This document shows positions 3,722-16,821 of a stretch of 64,000 bases of DNA, one piece after another. The stretch comes from Flaviflexus salsibiostraticola (lineage in GTDB: Bacteria; Actinomycetota; Actinomycetes; Actinomycetales; Actinomycetaceae), in contig NZ_CP034438.1 of the NCBI RefSeq assembly GCF_003952265.1, forward strand, positions 2,232,001 to 2,296,000, given 5' to 3'. Below the pieces are notes generated by a model that worked only from the letters and a program-made list of their open reading frames with translations, did not search any database and had not been told where the DNA came from. A program made the position numbers and the translations under genes. Position 1 is the first letter of the stretch. Each line of letters begins with the position of its first letter.

Positions 3722-5512
3722 ATGTCTCGAGTGCTCTCCGCTGTCGCCTGGCCCTACGCCAACGGCCCCCGCCATATCGGCCACGTCGCCGGGTTCGGGG
3801 TGCCGTCCGATGTCTTCTCCCGCTACATGCGCATGGTGGGGCACGACGTCCTCATGGTGTCGGGGACCGATGAGCATGGCACCCCCATCCTCGTCGCCGC
3901 CGAGCAGGAGGGGATCGAGCCGAAGGCGCTCGCGGATCGAAACAACCGGATCATCGTCGAGGACCTCGTCGCCCTCGGCCTGTCGTACGACCTCTTCACC
4001 CGGACGACGACCCGGAACCACTACGCCGTCGTCCAGTCGATGTTCGAGACCGTGCGGGACAACGGCTACATGCTCGTCGAGACGACGTCGGGTGCCGTCT
4101 CCCCAAGCACGGGCCGCACGCTGCCCGACCGCTACATTGAGGGCACGTGCCCGCATTGCGGCTATGACGGGGCCCGCGGCGACCAGTGCGACAACTGCGG
4201 CGTCCAGCTCGACCCGGTCGAGCTCATCGACCCCCGGTCGAAGGTCAATGGCGAGACCCCCGAGTTCGTCGAGACGGACCACTACTTCCTCGACCTGCCC
4301 GCGCTGGCCGGCGAGCTGTCGCGCTGGCTCGACCAGCGTGAGGGATCAGGCCTGTGGCGTCCCAACGTCATCAAGTTCTCCCAGCACATCCTCGACGAGA
4401 TCCGCCCGCGGGCGATGACCCGCGACATCGACTGGGGCATCCCCGTCCCCGGCTGGGAGGACAAGCCGAACAAGCGGCTCTACGTGTGGTTCGACGCGGT
4501 GGTCGGCTACCTGTCCGCCTCGATCGAGTGGGCCCGCCGCATCGGCGAGCCGGAGCGCTGGCGCGACTGGTGGAACGACCCGGAGGCCCTCTCCTACTAC
4601 TTCATGGGCAAGGACAACATCGTCTTCCACAGCCAGATCTGGCCGGCGGAGATGCTCGGCTACAACGGCCGGGGAGATAAGGGTGGGGAGCCCGGCACGT
4701 TCGGCGAGCTCAACCTGCCGACCCAGGTCGTCGCCTCCGAGTTTCTCACGATGGAGGGGAAGAAGTTCTCCTCCTCGAAGAAGATCGTCATCTACGTCCG
4801 GGACGTGCTCGCCCGGTACCAGCCCGATGCGCTGCGCTACTTCATCTCGATCGCCGGCCCCGAGACATCCGACTCGGACTTCACGTGGGCCGAGTTCGTG
4901 CGCCGCAACAACTCCGAGTTGGTCGCCGGCTGGGGCAACCTCGTCAACCGGACTGCGGCGATGATCGCAAAGAACTTCGGCGAGATCCCCGAGGCGGGAC
5001 CGCTCGAGGATATTGACCGCGAGCTCCTCGACGAGGTCGAGGCCGGCTTCGAGCGGGTCGGTTCCCTCATCGAAAACCACCACCAGCGCTCGGCGCTCGC
5101 CGAGGTCATGCGGATCATCGGCGTCGCCAACTCGTATGTGTCCCGGACCGAGCCGTTCAAGCTCAAGGCACCGGAGGAGCGGGAGCGGCTCGCGACGATC
5201 CTCAACACGCTCATTCAGGCCGTCTCCGATCTCAACACGATGATGTCGGTCTTCCTTCCGCACTCCTCGAACGCGATCGATCTCATCCTCGGCGGGGCGG
5301 GCGATCTCGCGCCCATGCCCCGCATTGACGAGGCCGAGGATCTGGACGGGGGAGATCCGTACCCGATCATCACCGGCGACTACACGGACCTGCGCCCGTG
5401 GTCGCGAATTACTGTCATCGCCGGCACCCCGATCGAGAAGCCGAGCCCCGTCTTCGTCAAGCTCGACCCCGAGGTCGTCGACGAGGAGCTCGCCCGCCTC
5501 GCAGACGCGTGA
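3722..5512 (+). CDS. metG: Methionyl-tRNA synthetase
   Basis: This class I aminoacyl-tRNA synthetase charges tRNA-Met in the cytoplasm. The HIGH motif ([10 protein letters not shown], residues 17-26) and the KMSKS equivalent KFSSSKK near residues 347-353 frame the Rossmann catalytic domain. A zinc knuckle CPHC-(10)-CDNC lies in the connective peptide. The C-terminal anticodon-binding helical domain is complete, and no tRNA-binding EMAP-like tail is present; 596 residues is normal for this type. The gene appears to be transcribed without a leader. Its stop codon overlaps the GTG start of tatD (GTGA), indicating translational coupling. Confidence 0.97.
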
Positions 5513-6444
5513 GTAAGAAGAAGGGACGCTCCGCGCTCCCTCCGATCCCGGAGCCGCTCCCCATCCCGGTCATCGACAACCACACGCACGTGGGCACCGA
5601 CCGGCCGGGGCAGGTGCAGAACCTCGACGACGATGGCAACCCCGGCCATCCTCTCCTCATCGAGGGGCAGCTGCGGGCGATGAGGCAGGCGGGGGTCAGC
5701 CGCGCCATCACCGTCGGCTGCGAGGTCCCGGACCTGCGCGACGTCATCGACCTCGCCCGCGCCCACCCGGAATTCTCGGCCGCGATCGCCATCCACCCGA
5801 ACGAGGCACCCATGCACGCCGGGGTTGTCGAGATCGCGCCCGATGGTCTTGAACCCCAGGTCGAGGACCACCATCGGCAGTACGATCTGGACGAGGCGAT
5901 CGACATGGTGGCCGACCTTGCCCGCGAGCCCGAGATCGTTGCCATCGGCGAGACGGGACTCGACTACTTCCGGACGGGCGATGCGGGCAGGAGCGCCCAG
6001 CAGGAGTCCTTCCGCGCCCACATCCGGCTGGCGAAGGAGCTCGGCCTGCCCCTGCAGATCCACGATCGCGAGGCGCACGAGGACACCGTGCGGATCCTCC
6101 TCGAGGACGGGGCGCCCGAACGGACTGTCTTCCACTGCTTCTCAGGCGACCGGCATCTGGCCGAGATCCTCGCGGAGAACGGCTGGTACGCCTCCTTCGC
6201 CGGGACCGTCACCTTTCCCCGGAATGGGGGCCTGCGGGAGGCGCTGAGAGCCCTCCCCGCCGAGCTCATCCTCGTCGAGACCGATGCCCCCTACCTGACC
6301 GCGCACCCGCATCGGGGCCGCCCCAACGCTCCCTACCTCGTCACTCTCACAGTGCGGGCCATGGCAGAGATCCGCGGTGTGCCGCTCGACACAGTGTGCG
6401 AGGAGCTGGTCGAAGCGACTGAAATGGCGTATTTCCGCCGTTGA
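5509..6444 (+). CDS. tatD: TatD-family metal-dependent DNase
   Basis: This TIM-barrel metallohydrolase family acts as a 3'-5' exonuclease on DNA in characterised members. The metal-binding motif VIDNHTHVG is near the N-terminus, GETGLDYF follows in the middle, then [19 protein letters not shown] and [15 protein letters not shown] in the expected order. The GTG at 5509 overlaps the metG stop, giving 311 residues. The N-terminal KKKGR segment precedes the barrel. In actinobacteria metG-tatD-rpfB-rsmA-ispE is a conserved run, which fits here. Confidence 0.92.
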
Positions 6445-6604: not shown

Positions 6605-7681
6605 ATGGGACGTCACTCCCGCAGACCAGACCAGGCTCCCGCCATTGTCCAGGCCCCGGAGGGCAGCGCCTTCCGGGCGAAGGCCGCATGGTCGACCGAA
6701 TCCCCAGCTATCCCGATGAGCTCCCGTCGCTACGGCGCGGTCGCAGCTCTCGCCGCCGCCACCGCGCTCTCCGCCGTCGCCGTCTCGACGGAATCGACTG
6801 CCCCTGCCTATGCCGTCGCCGGCGCCTTCGGCGCACCTCTCCAGATCGTTACGGATCTCCCGGACCTCAGCCGTGCCTTCACGGTCGAGGTCGACGGTGA
6901 GACCCAGGAGGTCACGACCACGGCCGAGACCTGGGGCCGTGCCCTGTCCGAGGCCGGCATTCGCGTTGGCCACGATGATCGCGTCAACGTCGATCTCGCG
7001 AGCGCCGTCGAGGATGGTGCTGCTGTCACGATCGAGCGCGTGTCCTACGAGACTGTCGTCGACGAGCAGGTCGATGAGTTCGAGACCATCCGCCGTGAGG
7101 ACCCGACCCTCGAGAAGGGCACCGAGACGGTGACGACAGAGGGGCGCAGCGGCGTCACCCGCGTCACCCATCGCGTCACCCTCGTCAACGGCGAGGAGGA
7201 GTCCCGCGAGCAGACCATCGTCGTCCGCAAGGCCGACAGGGTCGATGAGGTCATCTCCGTCGGCACGAAGGAGCCCGAGGCCGCTCCGGAGCCCGCACCC
7301 GCCCCCGCAACCGAGGCTCCGGCCCCTGCCGCAGCCGCGGCACCCGCGCCCGCCCCGGCACAGCCGGTCGTCGTCAGCGCAGGCGGCGCCAAGGGCATCG
7401 CCCAGCAGATGGTCGCCGGCAAGGGCTGGTCGAACTCGGAGTTCCAGTGCCTCGAGACGCTCTGGGAGCGCGAGTCGAACTGGAACCACCTCGCCCAGAA
7501 CCCGTCCTCGGGCGCCTACGGCATCCCGCAGGCCCTCCCGGGCGGCAAGATGGCATCGCACGGCGCCGACTGGCGCACGAACCCCGCCACCCAGATCGCG
7601 TGGGGCCTCGACTACATCCAGGGCCGCTACGGCACGCCCTGCGGTGCACTCAACCACTCGTACGCGCGTGGCTGGTACTGA
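6605..7681 (+). CDS. Exported G5-domain protein with lytic-transglycosylase-like C-terminal domain (rpfB position)
   Basis: The 358-residue protein has a basic N-terminus, a hydrophobic segment around residues 44-65 that fits a signal or anchor, one DUF348-like repeat (FTVEVDGETQEVTTTAETWG), and a G5 domain ending near the KADRVDEVISVGTKEPE segment. A long Ala/Pro linker follows, then a C-terminal domain containing LETLWERESNWNHLAQN and GAYGIPQALPGGKMASHG. That end resembles transglycosylase/aggregation-promoting-factor domains that cleave peptidoglycan, with the Glu in ERESNW as likely catalytic acid, rather than the canonical Rpf fold. The gene sits exactly where rpfB lies in mycobacteria. 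A GAGG sequence precedes the ATG, and tandem repeats lie upstream. Its end overlaps the rsmA start. Confidence 0.85.
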   Translation: MGRHSRRPDQAPAIVQAPEGSAFRAKAAWSTESPAIPMSSRRYGAVAALAAATALSAVAVSTESTAPAYAVAGAFGAPLQIVTDLPDLSRAFTVEVDGETQEVTTTAETWGRALSEAGIRVGHDDRVNVDLASAVEDGAAVTIERVSYETVVDEQVDEFETIRREDPTLEKGTETVTTEGRSGVTRVTHRVTLVNGEEESREQTIVVRKADRVDEVISVGTKEPEAAPEPAPAPATEAPAPAAAAAPAPAPAQPVVVSAGGAKGIAQQMVAGKGWSNSEFQCLETLWERESNWNHLAQNPSSGAYGIPQALPGGKMASHGADWRTNPATQIAWGLDYIQGRYGTPCGALNHSYARGWY

Positions 7682-8531
7682 CCTTCTCACCCCGAGCGAC
7701 ATCCGGGAGCTGAGCAGCGGGCTCGGCATACGCCCCACAAAGACGCTCGGACAGAACTTTGTCGGCGATGGGGGCACGGTCCGCAGGATCGTGTCCCACG
7801 CCGGTGTCTCCGAGGGCGATCACGTCCTCGAGATCGGGCCCGGACTCGGCTCGCTCACGCTCGCCCTTCTCGAGGCGGGCGCGTACGTGTCTGCGGTCGA
7901 GATCGATCCGGTGCTCGCGGCGGCCCTTCCGGAGACGGTCAACGCACGCCATGACCGCCCCGAGCGGTTCGCTGTCGCCCAGTTCGACGCGCTCAAGCTG
8001 GCCCACCACGAGCTCGCGGTCCCGCCCGCCCTCGGCTATTTCATGCCGACGTTCCTCGTGGCGAACCTGCCGTACAACGTTGCCGTGCCCGCGCTCCTCA
8101 CGGCACTCGAGCTCCTGCCCTCCCTCAAGGTCATCGACGTCATGGTCCAGCTCGAGGTGGCGGAGCGGCTCGCCGCGCCGCCGGGATCACGTGTCTATGG
8201 CGTCCCCTCGGTGAAGACGGCGTGGTACGCGGAGGCGACCCGTGGCCCCCTCATCTCCCGCAGCGTGTTCTGGCCGGTCCCCAACGTCGACTCAGCACTG
8301 GTCCGCTTCGAGAGGCGACCGGCCCCGGATGCGGAGAGGTCAGAGGTCTTCGCGATCATCGATGCCGCCTTCTCGCAGCGCCGCAAGACCCTCCGGCAGG
8401 CGCTGGCAGGGTGGGCGGGCAGTCCGGCCCGTGCCGAGGAGATTCTGCGCGCCGCCGACATCGACCCGAGCCGACGCGGTGAGACGCTGACGATCGAGGA
8501 CTTCGTCGCCATCGCGCACGCGCGGGTCTGA
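7668..8531 (+). CDS. rsmA: 16S rRNA (A1518/A1519-N6) dimethyltransferase RsmA/KsgA
   Basis: This enzyme dimethylates two adjacent adenines in helix 45 of 16S rRNA. The signature TKTLGQNFVGD precedes the SAM site VLEIGPGLGSLT, the acidic AVEIDPVLA and the catalytic VANLPYNVA. VFWPVPNVDSALV and the C-terminal helical region AFSQRRKTLRQAL complete the family pattern. The GTG at 7668 gives 287 residues and overlaps the preceding gene by 14 bases; no closer in-frame start conserves the N-terminal helix. The open frame extends further upstream only as a shadow of the preceding gene. Confidence 0.94.
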   Translation: MAGTDLLTPSDIRELSSGLGIRPTKTLGQNFVGDGGTVRRIVSHAGVSEGDHVLEIGPGLGSLTLALLEAGAYVSAVEIDPVLAAALPETVNARHDRPERFAVAQFDALKLAHHELAVPPALGYFMPTFLVANLPYNVAVPALLTALELLPSLKVIDVMVQLEVAERLAAPPGSRVYGVPSVKTAWYAEATRGPLISRSVFWPVPNVDSALVRFERRPAPDAERSEVFAIIDAAFSQRRKTLRQALAGWAGSPARAEEILRAADIDPSRRGETLTIEDFVAIAHARV

Positions 8532-8583
8532 GTCGAAGACCTCAGCCAGCCGCGATCGTGCGGATGTGGGGCCTGAAACGGCG

Positions 8584-8589
8584 TATCCT
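8584..8589 (+). promoter_or_regulatory. Putative -10 element of a leaderless ispE transcript
   Basis: TATCCT lies 6 bases before the GTG start of ispE at 8596. No ribosome binding site is visible, so the transcript probably begins at the start codon. Confidence 0.4.
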
Positions 8590-8595
8590 TGCGTC

Positions 8596-9476
8596 GTGCA
8601 TATCGTCTACGCTCAGGCCCCCGCGAAGATCAATCTGGCTCTCCGAGTGGGCGGTGCGCGCCCCGACGGATTCCACCCCCTGCAGACGGTGTTCTGCGCG
8701 CTGGACCTGTGGGATGAGATCGTCGTCGAGGCGGCCGAGGACCTGTCTCTGACGATCACCGGAATCGAGCTTGAGATCGATGACGACAACCTGGCGCTCA
8801 GGGCGGCACGCGCCCTCCAGCGGCACACGGGCACCGGCCGCGGCGCCCGCATCGCCATCCATAAGGGCATCCCCGTCGCGGGCGGCCTGGCCGGGGGAGT
8901 GCAGATGCGGCGGGCACCCTCGTTGCCCTCAATGCTCTGTGGGACCTCAATCTGCCGCCGTCGGAGCTGCATGCCCTCGCCGCCGACCTCGGATCCGATG
9001 TTCCGTTCCTCCTCAGGGGAGGGCTCGCGCTCGGCACCTCCCGGGGGGAGGACCTCGAGCCGATCACGCCGGGGGCCTTCCAGTCGTGGGTGCTCGTGCT
9101 CGATGACGAGGGTCTGTCGACCCCGGCGGTGTTCCGCCGTTACGACGAGCTCCACCCCGAGCCGCACGATCCGGCCCCGGTCGAGGAGCTCATCAACGCG
9201 CTCGGCTCACAGGTCCTCGGTGACCTGTCCGGGCTCTTCGTCAACGACCTCGCCGAGCCCGCCTTCACGCTCCGGACCGACCTCGCGGAGCGCTTCAATC
9301 GGCTGGATGGGGCGGGCATTGCCACGGTCCTTTCAGGTTCCGGGCCTACGATCGGTGTGCTGTGCGAGAGCGTGGAGGCGGCCGATGCTCTCGCGGGGCA
9401 GCTGTCGAAGGAAGGCCTGCGCGCGGTGAGGGCCGACGGCCCGGTCGCCGGCGCACATATCGTGAGGAGCAGCTGA
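8596..9476 (+). CDS. ispE: 4-diphosphocytidyl-2-C-methyl-D-erythritol kinase, frameshifted as read
   Basis: This GHMP kinase phosphorylates CDP-methylerythritol in the MEP isoprenoid pathway. The N-terminal AQAPAKINLALRVG and the start of the ATP loop (IPVAGGLAGG) read from GTG 8596, but the frame is lost at a run of five G at 8893-8897. Adding one G restores GGLAGGSADAAGTLVALNAL and the rest of the protein, including GSDVPFLLRGG and VLSGSGPTIGVL, through the stop at 9474-9476. The restored length is 293 residues. The gene is normally essential and its two halves show no other damage. A sequencing or assembly error in the G-run is therefore the simplest explanation; a true frameshift mutation is possible. 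The stop overlaps the next start. Confidence 0.88.
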
Positions 9477-11278
9477 TGGCGCACCTGCTGTCGATGGAGG
9501 ATGTCGGAATCACTCTCGGGTCCCGCCCGATCCTCGGCGATATCACCCTGGGATTGGATGACGGCGCGAGGGTCGGCGTGGTCGGTCCGAACGGCGGCGG
9601 CAAGTCGACCCTTCTCCGGCTCATCACAGGCGAGCTCGAGGCCGATAACGGTCGGGTGACCCGCACCGGCGGGCTGCGTGCAGCAGTCCTCTCGCAGCGG
9701 GACGAGCTGGCCGACACGACGGTGCGCGCCGCGATCCACGGCACAGCCTCCGAACACGAATGGGCATCAGAGCGGGCGATCCGCGAGCTCCACGCCGGCC
9801 TCATCCCCGATGTCGATCTCGACCGGGGTGTCAACGAGCTCTCCGGTGGTCAGCGGCGCAGGGTTGCGCTCTGCTCCGTCCTGACGGCCGACGCCGACCT
9901 CATCATCCTCGACGAGCCGACGAACCACCTCGACGTCGACGGTGTCGACTACCTCCACCGCTATCTCACCGAGCGCTTCTCCCGCGGCCGAGGCGCGCTC
10001 GTCACGGTCACCCATGATCGCTGGTTCCTCGACGCCGTCTGTGAGCGCATGTGGGAGGTCGTGCCCGGGAACGACGGGGCCGGTGGCCGCAGCCCCCAGC
10101 CCGGCCGGGTCGAGCAGTACGAGGGCGGCTACGCCGCCTACGTGCTCGCACGCGCCGAGCGTGAGCGCCAGCGCACCCAGGCGGAATCGAAGCGGGCCAA
10201 CCTCCTGCGCAAGGAGCTGGCCTGGCTGCGTCGGGGAGCGCCCGCACGGACCTCGAAGCCGAAGTTCCGGATCGAGGCCGCCAATGAGCTCATCGCCGAC
10301 GAGCCGGCGCCCCGCGACCGGGTCGAGCTGACGAAGATGGCGACGGCCCGGCTGGGCAAGGACGTCATCGACCTCGAGGACGTGTCATTCTCCTACGGCG
10401 AGCGGTCGATCCTCGAGGGAACGACCCTGCGGCTCGGCCCCGGGGAGCGGCTCGGCATCGTCGGCGCCAACGGGTCGGGCAAGTCCACCCTGCTCGGCCT
10501 CATCGCCGGCAGGCTCCAGCCGACGGGCGGGCGCGTCAAGCGCGGCAAGACCGTCCAGCTCGCCGAGCTGTCGCAGCACACGTCCGAATTGGATGCGGTG
10601 GGCGACATGAGGGTCGTCGAATCGGTCAGCTCGATCGCCACCTCCATCGACGTCGGTGGAAAGGAGATGACGGCGAGCCAGCTCGTCGAGCGTCTAGGCT
10701 TCACCCGGGAGCGGGCGTGGACCGAGGTGAGCCGCCTGTCCGGCGGCGAGCGGCGCCGCCTCCAGCTCATCAGGCTCCTCATGGCGAGCCCGAACGTCCT
10801 CCTCATGGACGAGCCGACGAACGACCTCGACACCGATACGCTGTCGGCGATCGAGGACCTGCTCGACGACTGGCCGGGCACCCTCGTCGTCATCTCCCAT
10901 GACCGGTACCTGCTCGAGAGGATCACCGACCATCAGGTTGCGGTCATGGAGGGGCAGGTGCGTCACCTGCCGGGCGGGATCGACGAGTACCTGACGCTCC
11001 GGGCCGCCCAGGAGGTCATCGACGACATCGTCGAGAGCGGGCCCGAGCCGACCGTCTCTGATGCTGCGATTGCCCGGACCGCGAGGAAGACGATGGCGAG
11101 GGTCGAGCGGCAGCTCACCCGCGAGCGTGAGGCGCTCGCCAAGATCCAGGACGAGCAGGTTGTCGCCGCGCTCGACTTCGAGCGCCTCGCGAAGCTCACC
11201 GATGAGGCTGCCCGCATCCAGCAGCGCATCGACGACCTCGAAGAGGAGTGGCTGTGGGCGGCCGAGCAGGCCGACTGA
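9476..11278 (+). CDS. ABC-F family ATPase (Uup/EttA-like)
   Basis: This soluble protein has two ABC ATPase domains and no membrane segment, the layout of ABC-F translation factors that act on the ribosome. Walker A motifs are GPNGGGKST (about residue 40) and GANGSGKST (about residue 327). The signatures LSGGQRRRVAL and LSGGERRRLQL and the Walker B motifs LIILDEPTNHLD and LLMDEPTNDLD are intact. A linker rich in Arg, Lys and Glu separates the domains, and a C-terminal coiled coil (about residues 530-595) resembles that of Uup. The ATG overlaps the ispE stop (TGATG). No antibiotic-resistance subtype can be assigned. Confidence 0.9.
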   Translation: MAHLLSMEDVGITLGSRPILGDITLGLDDGARVGVVGPNGGGKSTLLRLITGELEADNGRVTRTGGLRAAVLSQRDELADTTVRAAIHGTASEHEWASERAIRELHAGLIPDVDLDRGVNELSGGQRRRVALCSVLTADADLIILDEPTNHLDVDGVDYLHRYLTERFSRGRGALVTVTHDRWFLDAVCERMWEVVPGNDGAGGRSPQPGRVEQYEGGYAAYVLARAERERQRTQAESKRANLLRKELAWLRRGAPARTSKPKFRIEAANELIADEPAPRDRVELTKMATARLGKDVIDLEDVSFSYGERSILEGTTLRLGPGERLGIVGANGSGKSTLLGLIAGRLQPTGGRVKRGKTVQLAELSQHTSELDAVGDMRVVESVSSIATSIDVGGKEMTASQLVERLGFTRERAWTEVSRLSGGERRRLQLIRLLMASPNVLLMDEPTNDLDTDTLSAIEDLLDDWPGTLVVISHDRYLLERITDHQVAVMEGQVRHLPGGIDEYLTLRAAQEVIDDIVESGPEPTVSDAAIARTARKTMARVERQLTREREALAKIQDEQVVAALDFERLAKLTDEAARIQQRIDDLEEEWLWAAEQAD

Positions 11279-11282
11279 GTGC

Positions 11283-12386
11283 CTAGGGAGCGGGTGCCTC
11301 CGAGGGCTGCTCGGGAACGGCGGCGAGCAGATAGCCGCCATCAGGCCCGAAAAGCAGCGCTGCACCCTGGGGCGTGACGTGGGCGGGAACGAGGACCGTC
11401 CCCTCACCGTCCGCATAATAGGCCTGAGCAATCGCCCCGGTCAGGACGTTGTGGACCCTGATCGCATCCCCCTCGCGCAGGTAGGCGAAGATACCGCCCA
11501 CGCTGACCAGCTCCGTCTCGGGGCCAACGGTGATCGACCAGAGGGCCTCTCCCTCGCCGTAGGCATGGAGCGCCGATGCATCGCGGACGACGAGCGTGCC
11601 GGTCGCGGGATCGACGCCCGCGCTCTGAGCCGACTCGGCGACGGTCTGTCCAGTTGCGACGTCGATGATGCGACCACGGTCGCCCTCCCTCAGCAGGGCG
11701 TACTCGCCGTCCATCCCCACCCACTCGGTGCTCGTCGGCTCGCCGGCGTCGACCGACCACAGAGTCGTGCCCGACGGGTCGACTGCACTGAGCACCTCCT
11801 CCTCTGCGGCGAGCAGGGTGCCGGAGTACTCGGCGAGGTAGGGTCCGGTGATCATGGTGCCGTCGTCGGGGTCGAGGGTGAAGCGCTCGCCCTCATCGGA
11901 GAAGATGAGCCCCGGCCCCTCGAAGGAACCAGGAACATCGACCGGCCCCCAGAGGCTCTCACCCGTCCGCAGGTCATAGGCCTGCGCCGAGAGGCTGGTC
12001 GACTCCCCGTCATCGAGCAGGACAGCCACGGGCATGCCGTCGCTCGTCGACGTCACGGCGAAGTCGGTGAAGGAGGAGGGTCGCTGCGTTGACCAGAGAA
12101 CCTCGCCGAATATCGTCATCGCCTCGAAGGTGAGAACGTCATCCAGGCTGGCGGAGAGATAGATGCCGTCCGCGAACTGCGGCGGCAGATCCCACCCCGG
12201 GTCCAGCACCTCGAGTCCGTCGAGGGCGATCGGCACGTTCATGTCCGAGGTGTCGACGATGGTCGGCTCGGCATGCTCCGTCTTCACCTCTCGATCGATG
12301 TCAGGCTGTGAGCCGCAGGCGGCGAGGAGCAGGGCGCCTGCGGCTACCAGTGCAGCGCCCCTCCGATGCGGAGTGCGAGAAGTCAC
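11283..12386 (-). CDS. Exported lipoprotein with beta-propeller-like repeats
   Basis: The 367-residue product starts at GTG 12386 with GAGGGAG upstream. It carries a lipoprotein signal ending LLLAACGSQP. The body has repeated blocks with Trp-rich motifs (LWSTQRP, LWGPVDVPG, LWSVDAGE, LWSITVGPE) typical of PQQ-like/WD-type propellers. No enzymatic motif is visible. It is the third gene of a unit with a DsbA-like and a CcdA-like protein and overlaps the ccdA-like gene by 4 bases. A role in envelope protein folding or sensing is inferred only from that context. Confidence 0.75.
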   Translation of the reverse strand: MTSRTPHRRGAALVAAGALLLAACGSQPDIDREVKTEHAEPTIVDTSDMNVPIALDGLEVLDPGWDLPPQFADGIYLSASLDDVLTFEAMTIFGEVLWSTQRPSSFTDFAVTSTSDGMPVAVLLDDGESTSLSAQAYDLRTGESLWGPVDVPGSFEGPGLIFSDEGERFTLDPDDGTMITGPYLAEYSGTLLAAEEEVLSAVDPSGTTLWSVDAGEPTSTEWVGMDGEYALLREGDRGRIIDVATGQTVAESAQSAGVDPATGTLVVRDASALHAYGEGEALWSITVGPETELVSVGGIFAYLREGDAIRVHNVLTGAIAQAYYADGEGTVLVPAHVTPQGAALLFGPDGGYLLAAVPEQPSEAPAP

Positions 12387-13318
12387 GGTATCTCCCTCGG
12401 TGTGATGATGTTGCCGCCCGGTTGAGGCGTCGTGCCGCCGAACGGCGGGTGGTCGCCCTCCCCGGCGGACTGCGATGGCTCTGGTTCAGTCGGCGCGGCC
12501 GGGGTCCGGCGCGCGTACCAGATGGCGGTGATGAGGGCGGCGACCGCGACGATGGCGGCGATGTCGACGATGGGATTCGAGAGGAATCCCGCGCCCTCCT
12601 GGAGGTTGGCCTGGGTTGAGGCCGAGACGACCTCCGGCATGCCCACCAGTCCGTTGGTGGCCCAGAAGAGCACGCCGGTGGCGGTGATCAGCGCACCGGT
12701 CAGGACCGAGGTCGTGTGGAACCGGAAGCCCGCCACTGTGAAGCCCCGCCCGCGGAGCAGAGAGCGGCCGCGCCCGCCCAGCGGGCGCCAGAGGGCGACG
12801 ATGAGGAGAAGGGGGACCACCATGCCGGCGCCGTAGACGGCCAGAAGGAGACCGGCCGTCACACTGTCGCCGCTCGCCGCGGCGACGGTGAGCACCGCGC
12901 CGAGGATGGGGCCGGCACAGAACCCGGCGACCCCGCTCGTCGTCCCCAGCAGGAAGGTCTTGACCAACCCGGTGGCGGATGCCGCGCGGCCACGGGCCGC
13001 GGACTGCCCGGGGAGGATCGACGACGGGTCGAACCCGAGACCGAAGATCTGGGCGATTCCGAGCGTAATGAGGAGCAGCGAGGAGACGGTGATCAGCTCG
13101 GTCCTGTGCGTGAGGAACAGCGACCCGAAGGCGCCCGCCCCGACGCCGAGCGGCACGAGGATGATGAGCAGGCCGCCGTAGAACACGCCCGCGTGGAGCA
13201 GGAGCCGCGGCCCCGAACCGACCGTCGAGGCGAAGAACGAGGGCAGCAGAAGCGCAGCGCACGGTGAGAGCAGGGCGAGGATTCCGCCGAGGAAGGCGGT
13301 GACGAAGCCGACGTCCAC
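12383..13318 (-). CDS. CcdA/DsbD-type membrane thiol-disulfide electron carrier
   Basis: This polytopic membrane protein belongs to the DsbD/CcdA transmembrane family, which passes electrons from cytoplasmic thioredoxin to extracytoplasmic thiol proteins. The paired redox cysteines are seen at C20 (ALLSPCAALLLP) and C134 (SGVAGFCAGPILG) in the expected first and fourth helices. About six to seven helices are predicted, and the last 45 residues form a Pro/Glu-rich cytoplasmic or external tail. It lies 2 bases after the DsbA-like gene and overlaps the lipoprotein gene. The three therefore form one operon with electron donor, carrier and a possible client. Confidence 0.87.
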   Translation of the reverse strand: MDVGFVTAFLGGILALLSPCAALLLPSFFASTVGSGPRLLLHAGVFYGGLLIILVPLGVGAGAFGSLFLTHRTELITVSSLLLITLGIAQIFGLGFDPSSILPGQSAARGRAASATGLVKTFLLGTTSGVAGFCAGPILGAVLTVAAASGDSVTAGLLLAVYGAGMVVPLLLIVALWRPLGGRGRSLLRGRGFTVAGFRFHTTSVLTGALITATGVLFWATNGLVGMPEVVSASTQANLQEGAGFLSNPIVDIAAIVAVAALITAIWYARRTPAAPTEPEPSQSAGEGDHPPFGGTTPQPGGNIITPREIP

Positions 13319-13320
13319 GG

Positions 13321-14031
13321 CTACTCCGCGAGGGCCGTGTCGACCGCGCCCGTGAACACCTCGGTCGGCTGGGCTCCGACGACCGGCTGTCCGTTGATGA
13401 AGAACACGGGTGTGGAGTACACGCCGAGGTCGATGCCGAGCTGCTGGTTCTCGGCCACCGCTCGGGCAGTCTCCGGTGAGGACAGATCCTCGGTGAACTG
13501 CGCGACGTCAAGGCCGAGTTCGCCGGCGACACCGGTCAGTGCAGCCTCGGTCAGGTCGGAGGAGACCTGCCCATCGACGAACAGGGCGTCGTGGAACTCC
13601 CAGAACGCGCCCTGCTGCCCGGCTGCGTGCGCCGCGAGGGCGGCCCGCTCGGAATCCTCGCCGAAGACCGTGAGGTCCCGCCATTCGATTCTGAGCTCGC
13701 CCGCGTCGACATAGTCGAGCATGCTCGGCAGGGTCTGCTCGGTCCACCGAGCGCAGAACGGGCACTGGTAGTCAGAGAAGGCGACCATGACGACTGGCGC
13801 GTCGACCGGGCCGATCGCCAGCGGGTCGCCCTCCTGTCGTCGCTCGGCCGTCGAGTAGTCGGGTGTTGAGGGCCCCTGGACCTGGGTCGGGGCGGAGACC
13901 CTCGCCACTCCGGAGGCGTCGGATTCCTCGCCCCCGCCGCGCGCGAGAACGGCGACGATGAGTGCGGCGGCGATGATGAGAATGGCGAGGGGGACGAGCA
14001 CAGCAGGCCGCGCGGCAGTCCGGTTGGGCAT
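13321..14031 (-). CDS. Membrane-anchored DsbA-like thioredoxin-fold protein
   Basis: An N-terminal membrane anchor (residues about 10-30) is followed by a DsbA-type thioredoxin domain. The active site CPFC is at C90-C93 in FSDYQCPFCARW, and the cis-proline loop is YSTPVFFINGQP. Such proteins oxidise or isomerise disulfides in exported proteins, or act as reductants when paired with CcdA. The ATG at 14031 is preceded by GGAGA and gives 236 residues; an in-frame ATG at 14070 would overlap the operator. It heads the operon with the CcdA-like carrier and is divergent from the BlaI-controlled unit. Confidence 0.87.
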   Translation of the reverse strand: MPNRTAARPAVLVPLAILIIAAALIVAVLARGGGEESDASGVARVSAPTQVQGPSTPDYSTAERRQEGDPLAIGPVDAPVVMVAFSDYQCPFCARWTEQTLPSMLDYVDAGELRIEWRDLTVFGEDSERAALAAHAAGQQGAFWEFHDALFVDGQVSSDLTEAALTGVAGELGLDVAQFTEDLSSPETARAVAENQQLGIDLGVYSTPVFFINGQPVVGAQPTEVFTGAVDTALAE

Positions 14032-14051
14032 GGGGTCTCCGTTCGGTTGAC

Positions 14052-14087
14052 GACTATCCAGCATAGTCAACTATCGACGATAGTCGA
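14052..14087. promoter_or_regulatory. Double BlaI-type operator between divergent operons
   Basis: Two dyads share the half-site ACTAT-N5-ATAGT: GACTAT-CCAGC-ATAGTC at 14052-14068 and ACTATCGACGATAGT at 14070-14084, the latter extending imperfectly to 14067-14087. Their centres are 17 bases apart. BlaI/MecI repressors bind related ACTAC/GTAGT dyads, and a BlaI-family gene is the second gene of the rightward operon. The site overlaps the likely promoters of both operons, so co-regulation is inferred. Confidence 0.65.
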
Positions 14088-14107
14088 GAGTGTGACAGAA
14101 TCACAGC

Positions 14108-14608
14108 ATGACGCCTGCAGATCAGCTCCTAGCACATCGCGGAACGGGCAGCCCGGTGGTAACCGCCCTGCGGGGGTGGACCGGCCGGCAGGTCGCGGTG
14201 GCGGCCGCTGCCAGCATCGCCATCGCGCTTGTCATCGGAATCGCGACCGTTCTCATTCCCAATCCGATCTTCGGTCGAGACATACCGCCCGTCTGGTGGA
14301 ACTACCCGGTCTGGATCCTCACCTCGATCCTCTCCGGCATGCTCCTCGCCACGTACATCGCTGGCGAGGACGACGGATCGCCGAGGACCCGTCGGTTCGG
14401 AATAGTCGGCACCGCCCTCGCGTGGTTCGCTGTGGGCTGTCCCGTCTGCAACAAGATCGCACTCCTCGCCCTCGGCTACTCGGGCGCCATCACCTGGTTC
14501 GCTCCGCTCCAGCCCGTCCTCGCCATCGGCGCGCTCGCCCTCACCGGCATCGCCCTCGTGTGGCGCCTGCGCGGGCAGGTCGCCTGCCGGACGGGAGTCG
14601 GGCGATGA
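14108..14608 (+). CDS. Small membrane protein with a CPVC motif, function unknown
   Basis: The 166-residue protein has about four hydrophobic helices (roughly 26-50, 66-85, 98-121 and 124-153). A vicinal pair C111-C114 sits in FAVGCPVCNKIALLALG at a helix boundary, with another cysteine near the C-terminus (C160). I do not recognise a named family. The motif and its place opposite DsbA/CcdA-like genes suggest participation in thiol-disulfide or metal chemistry at the membrane. It is the first gene of the BlaI-M56 operon, immediately behind the double operator, and overlaps blaI by ATGA. Confidence 0.65.
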   Translation: MTPADQLLAHRGTGSPVVTALRGWTGRQVAVAAAASIAIALVIGIATVLIPNPIFGRDIPPVWWNYPVWILTSILSGMLLATYIAGEDDGSPRTRRFGIVGTALAWFAVGCPVCNKIALLALGYSGAITWFAPLQPVLAIGALALTGIALVWRLRGQVACRTGVGR

Positions 14609-14976
14609 CTGAGTTCGAGGAGCCGATCCGCCTCGGCGCGCTGGAGGCGCAGGTCATGGACGTCCTGTGGGACGTGGGGCCGGGCACCGTTCGCGACATC
14701 ATCTCCCACATCGCCTCCAATCCTGCCTACACGACGATCGCGACCGTCCTCGCCAATCTCGACCGGAAGGGAATGGTCGAGATCTCCCGCTCGAGGCGGT
14801 CGACGACGTACTCGGCTGGCATGAGCCGCGCCGAATACGAGGCGAATCAGATGGCGTGCGTGCTGCGAGGCAGCCGCGACCGAGCCTCGTCGATCCTCCA
14901 TTTCGTCGAGTCGATGTCGGAGACAGACAGAGTCCTGCTGCGCGACTTCCTCACGTCGAAGGCGGCTGAGCGGTGA
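14605..14976 (+). CDS. BlaI/MecI-family transcriptional repressor
   Basis: This 123-residue winged-helix protein matches the BlaI/MecI/CopY penicillinase-repressor family. LGALEAQVMDVLWDVGPGTVRDI forms the first helices, here split by the wing segment, and YTTIATVLANLDRKGMVEI is the recognition helix region. The C-terminal dimerisation helix carries ACVLRGSRDRASSILHF. Family members bind short dyads and are inactivated by proteolysis via an M56 membrane peptidase. That partner is encoded directly downstream with a 4-base overlap. The double dyad at 14052-14087 is the likely operator, implying autoregulation. Confidence 0.9.
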   Translation: MTEFEEPIRLGALEAQVMDVLWDVGPGTVRDIISHIASNPAYTTIATVLANLDRKGMVEISRSRRSTTYSAGMSRAEYEANQMACVLRGSRDRASSILHFVESMSETDRVLLRDFLTSKAAER

Positions 14977-15932
14977 GCGTGGTGGCGCTCGCCTCGGCTT
15001 TCGCGCTCGCGGTCGTCCTCGCCGCGATTGTCGGACCGCTGCTGCTGCGCCGCTCGGCACCGCTGCTCGTCCGACTGCCGCGCCTCGCAATCGCCGTGCT
15101 CGCCGGCACGATCCTCCTGTGGCCGGCCGCGCTGCTGAGCATCGGTCCCCTCGCCGCGTGGCTCCTGTCCGGGCCGACGATTCTCCCCGAGGGCGCCGCC
15201 GAGGTCTGCCAGCGCTGCATCAGCGCAGCCAACCCCTTCGGCGCAGAGATCGGGTCGGGTCCCGTTCCGTCGATCCTCCTTCTTGCGCTGCCGGCCGCCG
15301 CCGCAGTGGTGCTCGGGGCGGCGGTCGCGGTACGGCTCCGATCGAACGTGGGGGAGCTGGTGAAAGCCGCAGAGAGCGTGAGCGGCCAGAGCCGGGTCAT
15401 TGCCGGACACAGGGTGACGGTGGTGGCGGACGATCGACTGCTGGCCTACTCCCTTCCCGGCGCCCGCGGCGGGATCGTGCTATCGACCGGGGCACTCGCG
15501 GCTCTCGAGCGGGCGGAGTTGGCCGCAGTGCTCGCGCACGAGCGTGCCCACGTGAGGCAGCGCCACCACTGGGTCATGGCCCTCACCGACTCCATCTCAA
15601 CCGTCCTCACCGCCGTGCCCCTCATCCGGGAGGCCAGGCGCATGCTTCCTGCCTATCTCGAGATCGCCGCAGACCGGGCGGCACAGAAGGCCGCGGGGAC
15701 GACCGCCGTAGTCAGCGCCCTCCTCACGCTCGGCGAGCGCAGCGCGGTCAGAGAGGGTGCGCTGCACATGGCGGGTCCGGAGCGTGTGCGCCAGCTGGTC
15801 GCCCCGGCCCGCGGCCGGGCAGGGGCCCTGCCGACCGCGGTCATGATCTCGCTCGTCGTGGTTCTCGCCGCCGTGACGGCGCTTGTGTTCGCGCCCTACT
15901 CCGCCGCGCTCGCGGTGGGATGTGCCCTATGA
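14973..15932 (+). CDS. BlaR1/MecR1-like M56 membrane metallopeptidase
   Basis: The 319-residue protein has two N-terminal hydrophobic helices, a third near residues 99-120 and a C-terminal one near 287-315. The zinc motif HERAH (H189, E190, H193) and the downstream EIAADRAA ligand motif define an M56-type gluzincin. It lacks the C-terminal penicillin-binding sensor of BlaR1. Instead the predicted loop between helices 2 and 3 holds a CxxC pair (C79-QR-C82). By family knowledge it should cleave the BlaI-like repressor on activation. Sensing of envelope redox state by the CxxC loop is my inference from the thiol-disulfide context. Confidence 0.85.
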   Translation: MSVVALASAFALAVVLAAIVGPLLLRRSAPLLVRLPRLAIAVLAGTILLWPAALLSIGPLAAWLLSGPTILPEGAAEVCQRCISAANPFGAEIGSGPVPSILLLALPAAAAVVLGAAVAVRLRSNVGELVKAAESVSGQSRVIAGHRVTVVADDRLLAYSLPGARGGIVLSTGALAALERAELAAVLAHERAHVRQRHHWVMALTDSISTVLTAVPLIREARRMLPAYLEIAADRAAQKAAGTTAVVSALLTLGERSAVREGALHMAGPERVRQLVAPARGRAGALPTAVMISLVVVLAAVTALVFAPYSAALAVGCAL

Positions 15933-15963
15933 CGGACACCATCCACGCCCGGGGGCAGGGCTC

Positions 15964-16821
15964 ATGAGCGTCGTCGCGGGGCTGATCATGGCCGGGTTGC
16001 TTCTCGCCCAGGGAGCCCAGGTCGATGCAGTCGCCATCGGCGACTCCTACTCCTCCGGCCACGGCGCAGGGCAGTACAGCGACGAGCTGTGCCTCCGCTC
16101 CGAACAGGCATCGATCGAACGTGTTGCGGACTTCTTCGGCGGCACGGCCGTCAACGCGGCCTGCAGCGGCGCGAAGGTCGCCGACCTGACCGAGCCCCGC
16201 ATCATCTCCCAGACGCGGGCCGACGGTACGGAGTGCGCGACAGACATGACGGGGGCGACTGCGACGCTCGAGGATGGCATCTGCACCATCACCCTCGACC
16301 CGCAGATCGAGGCAGCCGCCGGTGCGACCGACGTGTTCATCATGATCGGCGGCAACGATATCGGCTTCCTCCCGATCGCAGGCGCCTGCCTTTTCCAGGG
16401 AAACCCAGAGCAGTGCGAGATCGCCGTCGACAGCGCACGGCAGTCGGTCGGCACCGTCATTGACAGGCAGCGTGATGCCCTCATCGCCCTGCGGGAGATC
16501 GCCCCGCAGGCCCGCCTCCACCTCGTGCCCTACCCCCGACTCATCGAGGGAGGGCCCGCGGGGGAGATCCCGGTCGATGCGGCCGGGTTCCAGCAGGAGT
16601 GGGAGGACAGTCTGCGCGAGCTGGCGGCTGAGATGTCGGCCGAGATCGGCGACGTCTATTACGTCGAGACGCTCACTCCGATCTGGGAGGGGCATGGCCT
16701 GGGCGCGGCCAACAGCTGGATCCACACGGATGGCAGCATCCGCGACCTGCTCCACCCCACGGACGCGGGATGGCGGGCGGGCGGCTCGGCCCTCATCGCC
16801 CACCTCGGCCTCGTCCTGTGA
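15964..16821 (+). CDS. Secreted SGNH-family esterase/lipase-like hydrolase
   Basis: A short hydrophobic N-terminus is followed by the GDSL block AVAIGDSYSSGHGAG with nucleophile S28. The oxyanion block is MIGGNDIGF, and the C-terminal DLLHPTDAGW supplies the Asp/His pair. Multiple cysteines (C45-type pairs, for example SDELCLRS and VNAACSG) suggest disulfide bonds typical of secreted actinobacterial SGNH hydrolases. Length is 285 residues from ATG 15964. It is the last gene of the BlaI-M56 unit, 31 bases after the peptidase gene. A disulfide-containing secreted enzyme beside a Dsb-type system fits as a client, though that is inference. Confidence 0.82.
   Translation: MSVVAGLIMAGLLLAQGAQVDAVAIGDSYSSGHGAGQYSDELCLRSEQASIERVADFFGGTAVNAACSGAKVADLTEPRIISQTRADGTECATDMTGATATLEDGICTITLDPQIEAAAGATDVFIMIGGNDIGFLPIAGACLFQGNPEQCEIAVDSARQSVGTVIDRQRDALIALREIAPQARLHLVPYPRLIEGGPAGEIPVDAAGFQQEWEDSLRELAAEMSAEIGDVYYVETLTPIWEGHGLGAANSWIHTDGSIRDLLHPTDAGWRAGGSALIAHLGLVL

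What the first reader, a model, noticed from the sequence alone, without database searches (positions are those of the whole stretch)
12383..16821. Candidate undescribed system: BlaI/M56-controlled extracytoplasmic thiol-disulfide regulon
Two divergent operons (DsbA-like, CcdA-like, lipoprotein; CPVC membrane protein, BlaI repressor, M56 peptidase, SGNH hydrolase) share one double operator. The M56 protein lacks the penicillin-sensor domain of BlaR1 and instead has a CQRC pair (C79-C82) in a predicted loop between helices. Together this suggests a two-component repressor/peptidase switch sensing envelope thiol or disulfide stress rather than beta-lactams. The genes and motifs are seen directly; BlaI/BlaR1 proteolytic signalling is established for beta-lactam systems; the redox-sensing role is inference.
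Basis: partly seen in the sequence, partly recalled or inferred. Interest (0 to 1): 0.8.

Follow-up and report, generated by a model that had tools for sequence, protein, structure and literature searches.

The report
BlaI/M56 switch controlling envelope thiol genes
A small gene set in this actinobacterium, and in the same layout in many relatives, appears to use a membrane protease with three cysteines predicted to face outward to switch on envelope thiol-disulfide (possibly sulfur-detoxifying) proteins, instead of sensing antibiotics as its well-known cousin BlaR1 does.

Summary
Observation confirmed: the genes, the CQRC pair in the M56 protein and the double operator are there. It is a conserved module: of 43 loci with a CxxC-type M56, 43 have BlaI, 42 DsbA and CcdA, 39 the CPVC membrane protein, 36 the lipoprotein. 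The SGNH gene is not part (shared only with a same-genus locus).

Co-regulation is well supported: operator ACTAT-N5-ATAGT has 94 sites in module promoters against 3 elsewhere in 719 kb. In 7 of 8 loci with a dsbA operon lying apart, both operons carry it (4 of 9 for the extra Brevibacterium dsbA operon).

New here: the M56 protein's only cysteines (79, 82, 317) are predicted outside, in the loop that signals in BlaR1 and in the tail. C82 and C317 are shared with the wider family; C79 is the addition. A related group adds a tail cysteine (CxC) instead.

The signal is not shown. CPVC relatives often sit in sulfane-sulfur islands, some in metal islands. Thiol/disulfide or persulfide stress is my best guess, copper the main rival. 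No structure model could be obtained. New variant of BlaI-BlaR1 signalling.

The parts
11283..12386 (-). lipoprotein with a beta-propeller-like (PQQ_2) stretch, last gene of the left operon; found in 36 of 43 module loci
   Evidence: (PF13360 E 7e-6, 26.3 bits, just under the cut-off of 27.6)
12383..13318 (-). CcdA/DsbD_TM membrane protein with both redox cysteines, C20 and C134
   Evidence: PF02683; both in 41 of 41
13321..14031 (-). DsbA-like thiol-disulfide oxidoreductase with a hydrophobic N-terminal stretch, CPFC (C90, C93); nearest solved relative TsdA/DsbA of C. diphtheriae
14053..14067 (.). operator copy 1, ACTATCCAGCATAGT
14070..14084 (.). operator copy 2, ACTATCGACGATAGT (perfect dyad), 17 bp from copy 1
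14108..14608 (+). CPVC membrane protein, about four predicted membrane helices; C111-P-V-C114 and C160 invariant in 30 aligned sequences; no Pfam family over cut-off
14605..14976 (+). BlaI-family winged-helix repressor; no conserved cysteine column; cleavage-type Phe (SSILH/F100) in 42 of 43
14973..15932 (+). M56 (BlaR1-type) zinc protease without a sensor domain
15162..15266 (+). predicted extracytoplasmic loop between helices 2 and 3 of the M56 protein (position of BlaR1 EL1), residues 64-98, with C79-Q-R-C82 at 15207-15218
   Evidence: PMC9834060 section 6 for BlaR1
15921..15923 (+). codon of C317 in the C-terminal tail (predicted outward), third residue from the end

Best explanation
It is a self-contained repressor/protease switch for an envelope thiol system. 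BlaI dimers sit on the double operator between the two operons and repress both (inferred from operator conservation). The M56 protease, made from the same operon, exposes its first outer loop (C79, C82) and its tail (C317) outside the membrane. In the wider family a loop cysteine and a tail cysteine mostly come and go together, so they probably form a disulfide that ties the signalling loop to the last helix. The extra C79 turns this into a three-thiol exchange site (C82-C317 versus C79-C82). When outside chemistry changes - oxidised or mixed disulfides, or sulfane sulfur (persulfide/polysulfide) - the bond swaps or is modified, the loop moves helix 3 as proposed for EL1 of BlaR1, the cytoplasmic zinc site cleaves BlaI before F100, and the operons are expressed. 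The products then act on the same chemistry: CcdA passes electrons from the cytoplasm to the DsbA-like protein, and the CPVC membrane protein and beta-propeller-like lipoprotein assist. Shown here: the parts, their conservation, the operator code, the cysteine pattern. Inferred: topology (by hydropathy and homology), cleavage, sensing, the chemistry of the signal.
For: Conserved module, 42 of 43 CxxC-M56 loci with BlaI, DsbA and CcdA. Operator at up to one mismatch: 94 sites in promoters against 3 outside in 719 kb. Both operons carry it in 7 of 8 loci with a dsbA operon lying apart (L018, L143, L145, L154-L157; exception L160). Hydropathy and charges put the three M56 cysteines outside. BlaR1 is proposed to signal through the same loop (EL1) and helix 3 (PMC9834060, sections 6 and 9 read). 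Among 85 M56 rows not linked to dsbA-ccdA, 42 have one loop and one tail cysteine, 23 none, 10 on one side only, 10 more than two with both sides. A third cysteine (CxxC in the loop or CxC at the tail end) is in 45 of 48 dsbA+ccdA-linked M56 rows against 2 of 77 others. BlaI keeps the P1' Phe in 42 of 43 (that this Phe is almost invariant in BlaI cleavage sites: passage). The own genome has a separate CcdA beside ResB, so this CcdA is free for another job. CPVC relatives lie within 6 kb of PDO, TauE or CstR-like genes in 9 of 22 other chromosomal loci and 6 of 17 opened plasmid loci against 2 of 73 control loci (p 2e-5 and 4e-4).
Against: No structure model could be made (25 tries, machine busy), so that loop and tail cysteines meet in space is untested. 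The three-cysteine M56 proteins are one branch of the tree, so the link between a third cysteine and dsbA-ccdA rests on one origin and is not statistically independent. Mycobacterial loci L024-L026 have dsbA, ccdA, blaI and M56 together yet only one loop and one tail cysteine. One CxxC-M56 locus (L129) has no dsbA, ccdA, CPVC or operator nearby. Within the CxxC modules sulfur genes are near in only 4 of 42 (p 0.19), and CPVC relatives on plasmids are near metal genes about as often as near sulfur genes (7 and 8 of 17). The extra dsbA operon of nine Brevibacterium-type loci has an operator at this stringency in only 4.
Confidence: 0.6

Rival explanations
1. The three outward cysteines bind copper(I) or another thiol-loving metal, and the regulon protects envelope thiols from it (the M56/BlaI pair as a metal sensor).
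For: The wider M56/BlaI family is near metal genes in 18 of 73 control loci, and CPVC relatives on plasmids in 7 of 17 opened. BlaI is related to CopY (TIGR02698 E 1.1e-6, far under its cut-off). In one relative (G219) a second double operator lies between a second ccdA and a dsbA followed by a CopD/CtaG-like gene, named by eye. CxxC plus C, and C plus CxC, are typical soft-metal ligand sets (recalled).
Against: CxxC modules are near metal genes in only 1 of 42 loci, fewer than controls (p 0.0014). The conserved module holds thiol-disulfide proteins and no recognised pump, metal chaperone or metal oxidase.
Confidence: 0.2
2. It still senses beta-lactams or cell-wall damage, as BlaR1 does, through another protein; DsbA/CcdA keep wall enzymes folded.
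For: BlaI/M56 pairs are named after this role, and M. tuberculosis BlaI is linked to beta-lactam response (search listing; passages).
Against: No penicillin-binding domain; no beta-lactamase or PBP recognised among the gene clusters that recur in the loci; 45 of 50 exact operator sites in 37 genomes lie at the module.
Confidence: 0.08
3. The cysteines only hold the fold together; the real signal comes from a partner such as the CPVC protein or the lipoprotein.
For: CPVC is near BlaI-M56 in 39 of 43 loci and has its own CxxC plus C set; a loop-tail cysteine pair exists in relatives with no dsbA nearby.
Against: A purely structural pair needs two cysteines; C79 and C82 are invariant in all 48 aligned sequences and C317 in at least 90%.
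Confidence: 0.12

Closest known systems
BlaR1-BlaI / MecR1-MecI beta-lactam switch (Staphylococcus aureus)
   Same: BlaI winged-helix repressor, M56 membrane zinc protease with HEXXH and E-xxx-D, similar predicted helix order, divergent operons sharing one operator region (recalled for bla), conserved P1' Phe in BlaI
   Different: no penicillin sensor domain; three cysteines in the EL1-position loop and tail instead; regulon is DsbA, CcdA, CPVC protein, lipoprotein
Mycobacterial BlaI (Rv1846c) and its M56 partner Rv1845c
   Same: short actinobacterial M56 next to BlaI (pairing recalled; fetched Mycobacterium/Mycolicibacterium M56 loci include ones with one loop and one tail cysteine)
   Different: published targets that I saw concern beta-lactam response, ATP synthase and division genes (search listing, passages), not thiol genes
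CsoR-like (CstR-type) sulfane-sulfur circuit with PDO, TauE and rhodanese (Streptomyces coelicolor, PMC7533328; passages seen)
   Same: the DsbA-CcdA-CPVC set lies inside such islands on six opened plasmids
   Different: sensor is a soluble CsoR-like protein; the window locus has none of these genes within 6 kb, and the own genome keeps such a circuit elsewhere
TsdA/MdbA thiol-disulfide oxidoreductases of actinobacteria (PMC9974433; passages seen)
   Same: the DsbA-like protein is closest in the PDB to TsdA (4PWO, 4PWP, 7UNN, 7UNO), a heat-induced oxidoreductase
   Different: the words BlaI and CcdA do not occur in the main text of that paper

Membership tests
BlaR1/MecR1 sensor-transducers | M56 gluzincin zinc site (HEXXH ... 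E-xxx-D) in the membrane protease part | tested here: met
   H189, E190, H193, E230 invariant in 48 aligned sequences, D234 at least 90%
BlaR1/MecR1 sensor-transducers | C-terminal penicillin-binding sensor domain | tested here: not met
   protein ends 12 residues after the last predicted helix; no such Pfam domain
BlaR1/MecR1 sensor-transducers | repressor cleaved by the protease | not testable with these tools
   only the conserved P1' Phe of BlaI was seen, 42 of 43
BlaI/MecI/CopY repressors | Penicillinase_R domain over cut-off | tested here: met
   PF03965 83.8 bits, cut-off 22.6
CopY copper repressors | equivalog model over cut-off and C-terminal cysteine cluster (cluster recalled) | tested here: not met
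   TIGR02698 28.9 bits against 121.95; no column with cysteine in 30% or more of 43 BlaI rows
CcdA/DsbD electron carriers | two redox cysteines in the membrane part | tested here: met
   C20 and C134 in 41 of 41; PF02683 over cut-off
DsbA/TsdA oxidoreductases | CxxC in a thioredoxin-like fold | tested here: met
   the two cysteines in 50 and 51 of 52 rows; PDB sequence matches 4PWO, 7UNN; fold itself not modelled
CstR-type sulfane-sulfur circuit | CsoR-like sensor with PDO/TauE/rhodanese in the locus | tested here: not met
   none within 6 kb in the window locus; 4 of 42 CxxC modules have them
Cytochrome c maturation (ResBC-CcdA) | ResB beside CcdA | tested here: not met
   the one ResB match lies at G000:C1:1364140, next to another CcdA

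The most novel reading that the evidence does not exclude
The M56 protein is a new kind of one-protein membrane sensor: a BlaR1-type protease that reads reactive sulfane sulfur (persulfide/polysulfide) or disulfides outside the cell through a three-cysteine loop-tail switch, and drives an envelope counterpart (DsbA-CcdA-CPVC) of the cytoplasmic CstR circuit, with the CPVC protein as an undescribed membrane thiol or sulfur relay.
Probability: 0.3. Interest if true: 0.8.

Novelty: new variant of a known kind. Interest (0 to 1): 0.62.

Why it matters
What BlaI/M56 pairs of actinobacteria sense outside beta-lactam systems is, as far as I know, mostly unknown (recalled). This locus gives a testable answer: three cysteines predicted outward, one short and very specific operator, and a small closed regulon of about six genes. 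It would also point to a role for the CPVC membrane family (1678 database relatives; no Pfam family over cut-off for the window's protein), which recurs in sulfane-sulfur and metal islands on plasmids.

Tried and rejected
SGNH hydrolase and MarR gene as module members: of the 46 loci they are seen only in the same-genus locus L126; rejected. Cytochrome c maturation as the job of this CcdA: rejected, another CcdA sits by ResB. Wider regulon in the own genome: of the five extra one-mismatch operator sites four were looked at; all are single copies and none heads an obvious thiol gene in my rough gene calls; the fifth (G000:C1:2233227) was not looked at. Sigma-70-like promoter at the operator: none found by the simple scan, which says little for actinobacteria. 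Phylogenetic independence of third cysteine and dsbA linkage: attempted, too few informative pairs, so no statistical claim is made. First sulfur/metal counts used seed proteins taken partly from CPVC loci, a circularity; the sulfur count was repeated with seeds from an own-genome circuit away from CPVC: the CPVC result held, the CxxC-module result stayed non-significant. The metal count was not repeated with fresh seeds.

Rows left out: one search skipped M56 pieces under 240 residues; one search dropped 10 rows with broken, cut or misaligned loop or tail (L054, L068, L069, L072, L090, L091, L163, L165, L236, L237) and three loci on duplicate contigs (L019, L021, L033). The 43 loci are those with a CxxC-type M56; L134, L164 (no CxxC), L163 and L165 (broken or cut) were left out beforehand. 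Plasmids: 17 of 49 records were opened, chosen by me to spread over groups, so those fractions are not a random sample. CPVC in chromosomes: 30 of the 43 places were fetched with wide flanks; of the other 13, two (window, G166) were known already and 11 were not opened. PDB sequence search with the CPVC profile: nothing believable. Literature: the listings of searches showed no paper joining BlaI/M56 to DsbA/CcdA; the library holds only openly licensed papers, and listings are capped.
Full report
What is there. The window is part of a 2.6 Mb one-contig genome. Its same-genus relative G093 holds a contig of 59362 bases, the length given for a contig of Flaviflexus huanghaiensis, so the window is probably a Flaviflexus or close kin (inference). 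Leftwards run a DsbA-like protein, a CcdA-like protein and a lipoprotein; rightwards a CPVC membrane protein, BlaI, an M56 protease, then an SGNH hydrolase and a MarR gene. Between them lie two 15-bp dyads.

Conservation. A search with the 48-row M56 alignment over 396 genomes of the order gave 33 with E <= 1e-30. With loci, 43 loci with a CxxC-type M56 were examined: BlaI in 43, DsbA and CcdA in 42, CPVC in 39, lipoprotein in 36. The one without DsbA and CcdA is L129. L163 (broken M56) and L164 (no CxxC), also hits, are not among the 43. The set includes Corynebacterium, Isoptericola, Leucobacter and Brevibacterium records and genomes of nine family codes (f1, f5, f6, f8, f9, f11, f13, f22, f38). 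The nearest dsbA is upstream and divergent in 35 loci, downstream and convergent in 7. The module is accessory: in the family 12 of 101 genomes have an M56 match at E <= 1e-3, and the three same-genus genomes listed without one show that close kin lack it. In nine Brevibacterium-type loci the lipoprotein and dsbA are doubled. SGNH and MarR are shared only with the same-genus locus L126.

Operator. The site reads ACTAT-S-NNN-S-ATAGT in most copies; there are one to three copies, mostly 16-17 bp apart. At up to one mismatch, 94 sites fall in module promoters and 3 elsewhere in 719 kb (48 loci). Of the 43 CxxC loci 42 have at least one such site (not L129). Eight loci have a dsbA operon apart from CPVC-blaI-M56 (L018 as an extra copy, L143, L145, L154-L157, L160): seven carry sites at both operons, L160 only at dsbA. 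Of the nine extra dsbA operons of Brevibacterium-type loci, four have a site at one mismatch, three more a looser one, two none. In 37 genomes 45 of 50 exact sites are at the module. The other five: a double site in G219 between a second ccdA and a dsbA followed by a gene that I read as CopD/CtaG-like (by eye); a double site in G426 before a small protein that I take for sortase-like (by eye); and a single site in G271 inside what looks like a coding region. Seven of the 37 genomes have no exact site. The regulon is thus almost wholly local, and the operator follows the dsbA-ccdA genes when they move.

Cysteines. In 48 aligned sequences (window and 47 closest homologues) C79 and C82 are invariant and C317 at least 90%; the wider M56 alignment lacks the pair. 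In 138 aligned M56 rows, of the 85 not linked to dsbA-ccdA 42 have one loop cysteine and one tail cysteine, 23 neither, 10 on one side only and 10 more than two with both sides; of the 53 linked rows 48 have three or more. The third is either C79, giving CxxC, or, in a Nocardiopsis-like group (L033/L240, L234, L238, L245), a CxC at the tail end. After removing bad rows and counting only CxxC or terminal CxC, 45 of 48 linked rows have it against 2 of 77 unlinked (L022, L129). On a quick tree without loop and tail columns the three-cysteine proteins are one branch: one origin, two positions of the third cysteine. The mycobacterial loci L024-L026 are linked but have two cysteines; gene order dsbA-ccdA-blaI-M56 was seen for L024 and L026. 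Hydropathy and charges put loop and tail outside, as in the cryo-EM topology of BlaR1 (PMC9834060: passages, sections 6 and 9). There, EL1 displacement is proposed to move helix 3 and favour BlaI cleavage. BlaI has no conserved cysteine column but keeps the cleavage Phe in 42 of 43.

What the effectors suggest. The DsbA-like protein is nearest in the PDB to TsdA of C. diphtheriae (passages of PMC9974433), a heat-induced oxidoreductase. CcdA keeps both redox cysteines. The own genome has four DsbD_TM stretches, one of them below cut-off; the one beside ResB serves cytochrome c by position. The CPVC protein has 1678 relatives, occurs in 42 of 394 genomes of the class at E <= 1e-20, and keeps CPVC plus C160 in 30 of 30 aligned.

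CPVC contexts. With seeds from an own-genome circuit away from CPVC, PDO, TauE or CstR-like genes lie within 6 kb in 9 of 22 other chromosomal CPVC loci (two of these 22 have a two-cysteine M56) and in 6 of 17 opened plasmid loci, against 2 of 73 control M56 loci (p 2e-5, 4e-4). All 6 of those plasmid loci also carry dsbA and ccdA; L273 carries BlaI and M56 too. Plasmids pA58H2, pA40H2, pLDW-10, pAD51 and those of Microbacterium and Streptomyces NBC_01197 show this plainly. The CsoR-like regulators looked at there have two cysteines 29 apart without the His of copper CsoR between (five of five plasmid ones; His rule recalled), like the sulfane-sulfur sensor ScCsoR with Cys37 and Cys66 (passages of PMC7533328). 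Of two regulators in metal islands one has the His, the other Tyr, so the rule is not clean. Other plasmid CPVC genes sit in metal islands (7 of 17, 2 of them with sulfur genes too), and some in neither (for example). CxxC modules themselves have sulfur genes in 4 of 42 (p 0.19) and metal genes in 1 of 42, fewer than the control's 18 of 73 (p 0.0014). The own genome holds a CstR-type circuit elsewhere (L293).

Verdict. The module, its co-regulation and its cysteine signature are well supported by comparison; protease signalling by homology; the nature of the signal is inference. I put thiol/disulfide or sulfane-sulfur stress first, copper second. It works like BlaR1-BlaI but is not a BlaR1, since the defining sensor domain is absent. 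The listings of searches showed no description of it in the held library.

Noticed in passing
window 8566-9476: An ispE-like kinase gene lies in two frames: the relative's protein (L126) aligns at 82% in one frame and then 78% in another. A frameshift or an assembly error; the relative's copy is open throughout.
   Followed up: partly
L198 (G426:C2) 5108-5726: A double operator of the module type lies just before a small protein that looks sortase-like by eye, beside genes that look like a mobile element.
   Followed up: partly
L197 (G219:C1) 7104-11081: Second ccdA // dsbA plus CopD/CtaG-like gene (by eye) with its own double operator, a possible link to copper or oxidase assembly.
   Followed up: partly
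L024-L026: Mycobacterium/Mycolicibacterium records with dsbA, ccdA, blaI and a two-cysteine M56 together.
   Followed up: partly
L287 (Mycolicibacterium chubuense plasmid pMYCCH.01): CPVC, TlpA-like, and two BlaI-M56 pairs in a row beside a multicopper oxidase: a likely metal-linked branch of the same family.
   Followed up: no
L265, L266 (own genome): Two further CcdA-like genes each paired with a redoxin; one lies beside a gene with a histidine-rich start that looks like a metal-transport ATPase (by eye).
   Followed up: partly
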